Part shown: positions 26,986 through 28,141 of the stretch, in pieces
Layout: each line of letters begins with the position of its first letter
Position numbering within the stretch: position 1 is the stretch's first letter
Assembly: GCA_005772955.1 (NCBI GenBank)
Contig: SXID01000047.1
Location: forward strand, 1 to 36,085
DNA: 36,085 nt
Source: Planctomycetia bacterium
GTDB taxonomy: Bacteria; Planctomycetota; Planctomycetia; Gemmatales; Gemmataceae
Reading direction: 5' to 3'
Program-made: the position numbers and the translations under genes
The notes under the pieces: generated by a model
Seen by the model: the letters and a program-made list of their open reading frames with translations, nothing else
Databases searched by the model: none
What the model was told of the DNA's origin: nothing

Positions 26986-27000
26986 CTTTCTTCTTGCGGC

Positions 27001-27057
27001 ACAGACATTCCTGTCTGTGCGCCGGTTAGCTCAAGGGACACAGACAGGAATGTCTGT
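27001..27057. repeat. Inverted pair of ACAGACATTCCTGTCTGT palindromes
   Basis: Two 18-bp copies (27001-27018 and 27040-27057) are exact reverse complements, and each is also a near-perfect palindrome (ACAGACA-TTCC-TGTCTGT). The unit looks like a dispersed planctomycete repeat. It follows the 25873-26985 gene by 15 nt and could act as its terminator. Confidence 0.8.
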
Positions 27058-27087
27058 ACCACAAGATAAAGGCATTGGCCGCGACTG

Positions 27088-27190
27088 GGTGTTGTGGCGT
27101 AACGGTGAACGCGGGGCGAACAGCCCTGGGTCGGCACCCGCGACGCGGCAAGTGAACTGACCCGTGCCGGTTCAACTCCGGTCGACGCCC
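27088..27190 (+). ncRNA. tRNA-like element with a non-standard anticodon region
   Basis: The ends fold like a tRNA: acceptor GGTGTTG (27088-27094) pairs with CGACGCC (27183-27189) with two G-U pairs; T8 and G9; D-stem GCGT/ACGC (27097-27100, 27109-27112) with an 8-nt loop AACGGTGA that has A14, GG and A21; T-stem GCCGG/CCGGT with the canonical loop TTCAACT (27171-27177). N73 is C and no CCA follows. Between the D and T arms lie 53 nt in place of the usual 22 or so: GGGG-CGAACAG-CCCT can form an anticodon-like arm but lacks U33, and GGGTC...GACCC can form a further arm. CGGCAC (27132) and GTGCCG (27164) offer an alternative pairing that would break the T-stem. It ends 33 nt before the aldo/keto reductase start. 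It may be a degenerate tRNA, a long-variable-arm tRNA or a leader RNA. Confidence 0.4.
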
Positions 27191-27223
27191 CTGACAGCAG
27201 ATCGCACCAAGAAGGAGCTTCCC

Positions 27224-28141
27224 ATGTCTCTTCCCACACGACCGCTTGGCAAGACCGAGGCGAAAGTCTCCATCCTCTGCCTTGGCGGGTGGCACATCGG
27301 CCAGCCGGCCATCGGCGATGCCGAAGCCGAACGCATCATGCACGCGGCCATCGACGAAGGCATCACGTTCTTCGACAACGCGTGGGACTACCACGACGGG
27401 CGTAGTGAAGAGATCATGGGGAAAGCCCTCGCGACCCGCGGTCGGCGCCAGAAAGTGTTCCTCATGACCAAGAACTGCGGGCGCGACGCGGAACACTCCC
27501 GACAGCACCTCGAAGACAGCCTGCGCCGCCTCCAGACCGACGTGATCGACCTGTGGCAGTTCCACGAGATTAACTACGACAACGACCCCGAGTGGATCGT
27601 GGAGCGAGGCGCTCTCGCGGTCGCCCTCGAAGCACAAAAAGCCGGCAAGGTGCGGTTCCTCGGCTTCACCGGGCACAAGGCGCCGCACATCTTGCTCAAG
27701 ATGCTCGCGACGCACAACAACTACGACACATGTCAACTCCCGGTGAACATCTGTGACTACTTCTACCGGAGCAGCATTCATGAGGTGATCCCGGAACTCA
27801 AGAAGAAGAACGTCGCCGCGATCGGCATGAAGTCGCTCGGCGGCGGGAACATGGACAGCGGCGGAAAGATCGTCGTGGATGGCGCCGCCACGGTCGATGA
27901 GTGCATCCGATTCGCGCTGTCGCAGGACATCGCGTCGCTGGTGGTGGGTGTCGATTCGATGAAGGTGCTGCTGCAAGACGTGAAGATCGCGCGTGATTTC
28001 CGTCCGATGCCGAAGGACGAGACCGACGCGTTGCTCGCACGCATGAGAACGATCGCGGGCGACGGCCGCCTGGAGCCGTCGAAGTCCACGCAACTCTACG
28101 ACGGTCCGTACCACCGCCGCCAGCACGGCTTCGCGGAGTAA
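27224..28141 (+). CDS. Aldo/keto reductase
   Basis: 305 residues; the ATG at 27224 has AAGGAG at 7 nt, so the upstream in-frame extension is rejected. The family pattern is complete: SLPTRPLGKTEAKVSILCLGGW, the Asp and Tyr of the catalytic tetrad in FFDNAWDYHDGRSEE, Lys in FLMTKNCG, and His in DLWQFHEI. The NADPH-pocket region near the C terminus (LSQDIASLVVGVDSMKVL) is also recognisable. Such enzymes reduce aldehydes or ketones with NAD(P)H in the cytoplasm; the substrate is not evident. The GNAT gene follows after 5 nt, so the two are co-transcribed. A tRNA-like sequence lies in the leader. Confidence 0.93.
   Translation: MSLPTRPLGKTEAKVSILCLGGWHIGQPAIGDAEAERIMHAAIDEGITFFDNAWDYHDGRSEEIMGKALATRGRRQKVFLMTKNCGRDAEHSRQHLEDSLRRLQTDVIDLWQFHEINYDNDPEWIVERGALAVALEAQKAGKVRFLGFTGHKAPHILLKMLATHNNYDTCQLPVNICDYFYRSSIHEVIPELKKKNVAAIGMKSLGGGNMDSGGKIVVDGAATVDECIRFALSQDIASLVVGVDSMKVLLQDVKIARDFRPMPKDETDALLARMRTIAGDGRLEPSKSTQLYDGPYHRRQHGFAE

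What the first reader, a model, noticed from the sequence alone, without database searches (positions are those of the whole stretch)
27088..27190. tRNA-like RNA with good D and T arms but an abnormal anticodon region, upstream of an aldo/keto reductase gene
Acceptor, D and T arms obey tRNA rules including T8, A14, GG, A21 and TTCAACT, but 53 nt separate the D and T arms, the best anticodon-like loop lacks U33, and no CCA is encoded. A CGGCAC/GTGCCG pairing competes with the T-stem, so two mutually exclusive folds exist just before a ribosome-binding site. Possibilities are a decayed tRNA, a tRNA carrying an insertion, or a tRNA-mimicking leader.
Basis: seen in the sequence. Interest (0 to 1): 0.6.

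Follow-up and report, generated by a model that had tools for sequence, protein, structure and literature searches.

The report
Conserved tRNA-like RNA that cannot decode
A few Gemmata-group bacteria carry an extra gene for a tRNA-shaped RNA whose decoding arm is too small to read codons but whose end looks like that of histidine tRNA, so it probably does a job outside ordinary protein synthesis.

Summary
RNAfold gives a complete cloverleaf at 27087-27190 and Rfam's tRNA model scores it 32.0 bits (cut-off 29); ARAGORN calls nothing. Two other genomes of the genus carry full-length homologues, 3 of 95 in the family; there it follows pheS. 15 of 15 other reductase orthologues read lack it upstream. 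So it is a free-standing RNA gene, not the reductase's leader. Substitutions keep the cloverleaf better than random placement (3 versus 7.9 broken pairs, P=0.001). Its D-arm is closest to tRNA-Leu. Its G-1:C73 pair occurs in 2 of 74 other tRNAs of the genome, both tRNA-His. The anticodon arm has a 5-nt loop without U33; a 36-nt variable arm follows. My reading: a non-decoding, tRNA-Leu-derived RNA, matured like a tRNA, possibly charged by HisRS. Against: three sequences only; carriers are not a clade; two copies have non-cloverleaf minimum-energy folds; expression and charging are untested.

The parts
27087..27094 (+). acceptor stem 5' strand, 8 bp; G27087 is a G-1-like base opposite C27190
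   Evidence: fold; invariant in 3 of 3 sequences
27095..27112 (+). T8, G9 and the D-arm (stem 27097-27100 with 27109-27112; the fourth pair forms only in the window copy)
   Evidence: D-region 16 of 18 identical to own tRNA-Leu(CAA) for the G004 copy, 13 of 18 for the window copy
27113..27127 (+). collapsed anticodon-like arm: 5 bp and a 5-nt loop GAACA, no U33
   Evidence: loop-closing pair C-G here, U-A in both relatives
27128..27163 (+). 36-nt variable arm: 7-bp stem, 3-bp stem, 4-bp apical hairpin
   Evidence: one compensatory pair (U-A here, C-G in relatives), one pair broken in G013
27164..27165 (+). linker; U27165 = U48, possible A15-U48 pair as in tRNA-Leu
   Evidence: sequence; U in 3 of 3
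27166..27182 (+). T-arm, 5 bp, loop TTCAACT
27183..27190 (+). acceptor stem 3' strand ending in C27190 (position 73)
27191..27193 (+). 3' trailer CTG; a trailer starting CT is typical of this genome's tRNA genes
   Evidence: 61 of 73 other tRNAs with a full trailer start with CT; also CT in both relatives
27224..28141 (+). neighbouring aldo/keto reductase gene; probably a chance neighbour
   Evidence: PF00248; element absent upstream of 15 of 15 other orthologues read

Best explanation
A free-standing accessory RNA gene: a tRNA-Leu-derived, class II tRNA-like RNA that no longer decodes. Shown in sequence: a conserved cloverleaf in three genomes at two kinds of genomic place, collapsed anticodon arm, long variable arm, G-1:C73 end pair, tRNA-type 3' trailer. 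Inferred: it is transcribed within a neighbouring gene's transcript (it begins 6 nt behind the pheS stop codon in G013), cut by RNase P to an 8-bp acceptor stem, trimmed and given CCA like the other CCA-less tRNA genes. Inferred more weakly: HisRS charges it through G-1:C73, since C73 should block LeuRS; the stable, ribosome-incompetent (His-)RNA then acts outside decoding, as an amino-acid donor or as a decoy or regulator of a tRNA-binding enzyme. My weights: functional non-decoding tRNA-like RNA about 0.75; histidylation about 0.3.
For: RF00005 is the best Rfam match of all three copies: 32.0, 26.6 and 27.9 bits. Two homologues at 86% and 83% identity over the whole element, flanks not conserved. 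97.2% of 107 pair cells form in 3 sequences against 31-44% when partners are slid. 10,000 random placements of the same substitutions break 7.9 +- 1.5 pairs, observed 3 (P=0.001). The pheS-element linkage is kept in G004 and G013 although no other ORF of 90 aa or more in the 19.9-kb regions compared matches between them. G-1 with C73 occurs in 2 of 74 other tRNAs, both called tRNA-His. Own tRNA-Leu, -His and -Sec genes exist besides it. Published data, read as passages of PMC9976931: E. coli tRNA-Leu variants without anticodon and variable arms are still charged, C73 abolishes this, and HisRS charges minihelices with G-1:C73.
Against: Three sequences only, two of them close (8 differences); the covariation score is reached in 56 of 500 shuffles. 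Three of 108 pair cells are broken: the fourth D-stem pair in both relatives and a variable-arm pair in G013. In G004 and G013 the minimum-energy fold is not the cloverleaf (-49.1 and -48.5, against -46.9 and -45.0 for the cloverleaf). The relatives fall below the RF00005 cut-off. No sigma-70-type site upstream (other promoter types not covered). No transcript data. One hisS match in each of the three carriers, as in most non-carriers, so no dedicated partner is seen. Bacterial HisRS identity also includes the GUG anticodon (PMC9976931), absent here; a third tRNA-His call of the genome, in an array, has A73. Patchy distribution also fits a dispensable or decaying gene.
Confidence: 0.55

Rival explanations
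1. A decaying tRNA-Leu paralogue or mobile tRNA remnant with a chance insertion; the three copies look alike through recent transfer or slow decay.
For: Patchy presence, carriers not a clade, different locus in G000; the strongest non-member matches are tRNA-Leu(UAA); three broken pair cells and an indel.
Against: Fewer broken pairs than random placement (3 versus 7.9), two compensatory pairs, the same odd anticodon arm and invariant ends in 3 of 3.
Confidence: 0.2
2. A cis-acting tRNA-like element of an mRNA: a processing or 3'-end stability signal behind pheS, or a leader before the reductase.
For: 6 and 31 nt behind the pheS stop codon in G013 and G004; 33 nt before the reductase start codon here.
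Against: The host gene differs between loci and the element sits at opposite ends of it; 14 of 14 further pheS downstream regions read and 15 of 15 other reductase upstream regions read lack it.
Confidence: 0.15
3. An unusual decoding tRNA: GAG (Leu) in a shifted loop in G004 and G013, GAA in the window copy.
For: tRNA-Leu-like D-arm; UGAG in the loop of both relatives.
Against: Needs a 3-bp stem and an 8-nt loop; the would-be anticodon and position 33 differ between copies; C73 instead of Leu A73; a tRNA-Leu(GAG) gene exists in the genome.
Confidence: 0.05
4. A bistable RNA switch between the cloverleaf and a fold in which the variable arm pairs with the D/anticodon and T strands.
For: Alternative helices of 9 and 8 bp, 95.9% of 74 cells paired (acceptor helix included); the minimum-energy fold of two of three copies is of this type.
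Against: No covariation; each of the three letter-variable pairs of the two alternative helices is broken in the copy that differs; -24.6 versus -44.9 kcal/mol in the window copy.
Confidence: 0.05

Closest known systems
Bacterial tRNA-Leu (class II)
   Same: D-arm, A15 and U48, G18G19, long variable arm, T-arm; the strongest non-member model hits are tRNA-Leu(UAA)
   Different: C73 with G-1 instead of A73, collapsed anticodon arm, 36-nt variable arm
tRNA-Sec and tRNA-Sec-like allo-tRNAs / selC-like tRNAs
   Same: lengthened acceptor branch (8+5 here) and long variable arm; irregular allo-tRNA-like sequences with G-1 are described (PMC7609411 section 7)
   Different: D-stem 3-4 bp, no usable anticodon, C73, 5-nt loop; the genus has its own tRNA-Sec
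tRNA-His (bacterial)
   Same: G-1:C73 end pair
   Different: body, variable arm and anticodon
tmRNA tRNA-like domain
   Same: tRNA-like ends without a decoding arm
   Different: D-stem kept, no G3:U70 pair, no tmRNA called by ARAGORN; tag frame and pseudoknots were not examined separately

Membership tests
tRNA (Rfam RF00005) | covariance score over gathering threshold 29 | tested here: inconclusive
   32.0 bits in the window; 26.6 and 27.9 in the relatives
tRNA (decoding) | 7-nt anticodon loop with U33 on a 4-5 bp stem | tested here: not met
   5-nt loop GAACA/GAGCA/GAGTA; a 7-nt reading has G at 33 in 3 of 3
tRNA-Leu | discriminator A73 | tested here: not met
   C73 in 3 of 3
tRNA-Leu | A15-U48 and G18G19 | tested here: met
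   letters present in 3 of 3; features as listed in PMC9976931 (passages); the tertiary pair itself is not shown
tRNA-His | G-1 with C73 | tested here: met
   3 of 3; elsewhere in the genome 2 of 74 tRNAs, both His
tRNA-His | GUG anticodon | tested here: not met
   no GTG in the loop
tRNA-Sec | 8-bp acceptor and 5-bp T-stem with long variable arm | tested here: met
tRNA-Sec | UCA anticodon, G73, 6-bp D-stem (D-stem length recalled) | tested here: not met
   RF01852 18 bits, cut-off 47; own tRNA-Sec is in L199
aminoacyl-accepting RNA | maturation, CCA addition and charging | not testable with these tools
   needs RNA and enzyme assays

The most novel reading that the evidence does not exclude
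A histidylated, non-decoding tRNA: a tRNA-Leu body re-addressed to HisRS by gaining G-1:C73 while its anticodon arm collapsed and its variable arm grew, supplying His-RNA for, or controlling, a process outside ribosomal decoding.
Probability: 0.22. Interest if true: 0.85.

Novelty: new variant of a known kind. Interest (0 to 1): 0.58.

Why it matters
A standard gene finder skips it (ARAGORN), so tRNA-like RNAs that dropped decoding may be overlooked in bacteria. If charged, it would be a natural test of how far acceptor-end identity alone can re-address a tRNA, and would point to an unknown use of aminoacyl-RNA in planctomycetes.

Tried and rejected
Leader of the reductase: rejected by the other loci. 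tRNA-Sec: rejected; 17 of 19 genomes of the genus have a separate 94-nt hit at 67.6-79.6 bits; five of these and the own copy were put to ARAGORN and called tRNA-SeC. Phage or plasmid origin: 8 phage and 13 plasmid records matched short stretches only, none covering 80%; no viral contig has either of two exact patterns. Extra HisRS in carriers: none seen. Intron: no arrangement restoring a 7-nt loop with U33 was found by eye. microRNA matches lie on an inverted repeat and are below their cut-offs.

Weak model hits: of 27 loci tested, 16 were tRNA-Leu(UAA), 6 tRNA-Cys, 2 tRNA-His, 1 unassigned (G047), 2 without a call (L107, L115, not tRNA-like by eye); of 20, 7 were tRNA-Leu(UAA) and 13 tRNA-Cys. 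Seven further weak hits (one of them G047 again) were fetched: one is tRNA-Sec, G047 is an odd class II tRNA, five got no call. Of these five, G009 (L193) and G113 (L194) do have a tRNA-like T-arm with a different middle; I judged them unrelated by eye, not by a test. Weaker rows were not all examined.

Literature: no description of this RNA in the listings of six searches. Read: passages of PMC7609411, PMC13092985 and PMC9976931 and section 7 of PMC7609411; of the other papers only listings.

Not looked at: pheS downstream in G005 and G014 and reductase upstream in G014; G018 has no pheS match and G001 no reductase match at the thresholds used. The listing was cut, so it does not show how the G004 and G013 copies rank in whole-genome tRNA searches. 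Model R1 rests on three sequences, so its E-values are rough. RNAalifold counted three both-side changes because it paired the D-arm differently; I use the two.

Full report
What is there. The segment 27087-27190 (+) folds as a full cloverleaf at -50.2 kcal/mol (for a slightly longer segment). Rfam's tRNA model aligns to exactly 27088-27190 with 32.0 bits, over its gathering score of 29; in the whole genome this is the 69th of 78 rows. ARAGORN calls nothing in the window. The acceptor stem has 8 bp if G27087 is counted, the T-stem 5. The D-arm is ordinary. The anticodon position holds a 5-bp hairpin with a 5-nt loop, directly abutting the D-stem. A 36-nt variable arm with an apical hairpin follows.

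It is conserved and free-standing. A DNA search of 99 genomes (own included) gave two full-length homologues, in G004 (86%) and G013 (83%) of the same genus; other matches covered short stretches of the query. A covariance model of the three finds the element in 3 of 95 genomes of the family at 118.7-126.5 bits; the next hits, 53.0 bits and below, are mostly tRNA-Leu(UAA) and tRNA-Cys where tested. No further member appeared at the thresholds used among 397 genomes drawn from the class or 392 from the phylum. An exact 30-base pattern over the GTDB contigs hit two records, a lake MAG (JAIOPV010000087.1) and the Gemmataceae isolate CJuql4 (LR594584.1); their contig lengths equal those of the G004 and G013 contigs, from which I take the family to be Gemmataceae. 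In G013 the element starts 6 nt, in G004 31 nt, behind the pheS stop codon, and pheS is the only matching ORF place in the 19.9-kb regions compared. 14 of 14 further pheS downstream regions read, the window genome's own (C40) among them, lack it. 15 of 15 other reductase orthologues whose 170 upstream bases were read lack it. So the reductase is probably a chance neighbour. In a PheS plus reductase tree of 15 genomes the carriers are not a clade (p-AU 4e-10; 2 changes forced by starred branches, 3 on the best tree), which means transfer, relocation or repeated loss. Only two genes were used, and the nearest relative of the window's genome differs between them (G015 by PheS, G010 by reductase).

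Which fold. In three sequences 97.2% of 107 pair cells of the cloverleaf form, against 31-44% when partners are slid. Two pairs change on both sides and stay paired: the loop-closing pair of the anticodon-like arm (C-G here, U-A in relatives) and a variable-arm pair (U-A here, C-G in relatives). Re-dealing 3' letters reaches the covariation score in 56 of 500 shuffles, so covariation alone is weak. The three broken cells are the fourth D-stem pair in both relatives and one variable-arm pair in G013. Placing the same substitutions at random 10,000 times breaks 7.9 +- 1.5 pairs; observed 3, P=0.001. Against this, the minimum-energy folds of the G004 and G013 copies are not the cloverleaf (-49.1 and -48.5): the 5' strand of the anticodon arm can pair with the variable arm, and the variable arm with the T-arm. 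With only the named helices scored, the cloverleaf is better (-46.9 versus -40.0 and -45.0 versus -38.5; window copy -44.9 versus -24.6). The alternative shows no compensation, and its letter-variable pairs are broken in the copy that differs.

What it is made of. I compared it with 74 distinct tRNA calls of this genome, array tRNAs included, with end positions counted from the T-loop by script. The D-region is closest to tRNA-Leu(CAA): 16 of 18 for the G004 copy, 13 of 18 for the window copy. A15 and U48 fit tRNA-Leu as well. The end is different: C73 opposite G-1. C73 occurs in 2 of the 74, both called tRNA-His and both with G-1; a third tRNA-His call, in an array, has A73. None of the 74 shows CCA, so its absence here says nothing; 61 of 73 with a full trailer start it with CT, as the element does. 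Passages of PMC9976931 say that in E. coli A73 and the D/T-loop core, not anticodon or variable arm, carry leucine identity, that tRNA-Leu lacking those arms is still charged but not with C73, and that HisRS charges minihelices with G-1:C73, though the GUG anticodon also belongs to bacterial histidine identity. Put together, the element looks like a leucine tRNA body re-addressed away from LeuRS and perhaps to HisRS. That last step is inference.

What it is not. tRNA-Sec: the own genome has one with TCA anticodon (L199). tmRNA: none found by ARAGORN. Phage or plasmid gene: no match covering 80% and no exact pattern in viral contigs. Allo-tRNAs and irregular tRNAs with G-1 described from soil metatranscriptomes (PMC7609411, section 7) are the nearest published relatives in kind that I saw, but the features given there (8/4 or 9/3 branches, anticodons) are not these.

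Verdict. It is most likely a functional, non-decoding tRNA-like RNA gene of patchy distribution; whether it is charged, and its use, are open. The weakest points are the number of sequences (three) and the absence of any RNA evidence.

Noticed in passing
L068 (G000:C5:22300-24800), L069 (C110:30900-32000), L070, L071, L072: Dense arrays of divergent tRNA genes (16 in 2.5 kb and 11 in 1.1 kb by ARAGORN) besides many dispersed tRNA genes; clustered tRNA hits also appear in G004 (C171, C36) and G013 (C3, C2).
   Followed up: partly
26995-27064: Two inverted copies of ACAGACAGGAATGTCTGT just upstream (27001-27018 and 27040-27057; none in 100 shuffles); they account for sub-threshold microRNA matches in Rfam.
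   Followed up: no
L086 (G000:C31:2656-2733): Fragment whose 3' half matches own tRNA-Arg(TCT) (by eye), possibly an attachment-site remnant of an integrated element.
   Followed up: no
L193 (G009:C13:165133-165245) and L194 (G113:C254:21445-21547): Sequences with a tRNA-like T-arm but an aberrant middle or 5' half and no ARAGORN call; perhaps tRNA remnants, perhaps other aberrant tRNA-like RNAs.
   Followed up: partly
L197 (G047:C581): Class II tRNA with an 8-nt anticodon loop that ARAGORN cannot assign (anticodon 'agtt').
   Followed up: no
L010 508-1290 (+): ORF whose C-terminal part resembles a PIN-domain (VapC-like) protein, convergent with the element in G013; the resemblance is recalled, not tested.
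   Followed up: no
D/anticodon strand and variable arm of the element: GACGCGG occurs in both places in the G004 copy, and the variable arm is complementary to parts of the D/anticodon and T arms; it may have grown by partial duplication. Not tested statistically.
   Followed up: no
G003, G005: No hisS match in two fairly complete genomes (92 and 94%) of the genus.
   Followed up: no
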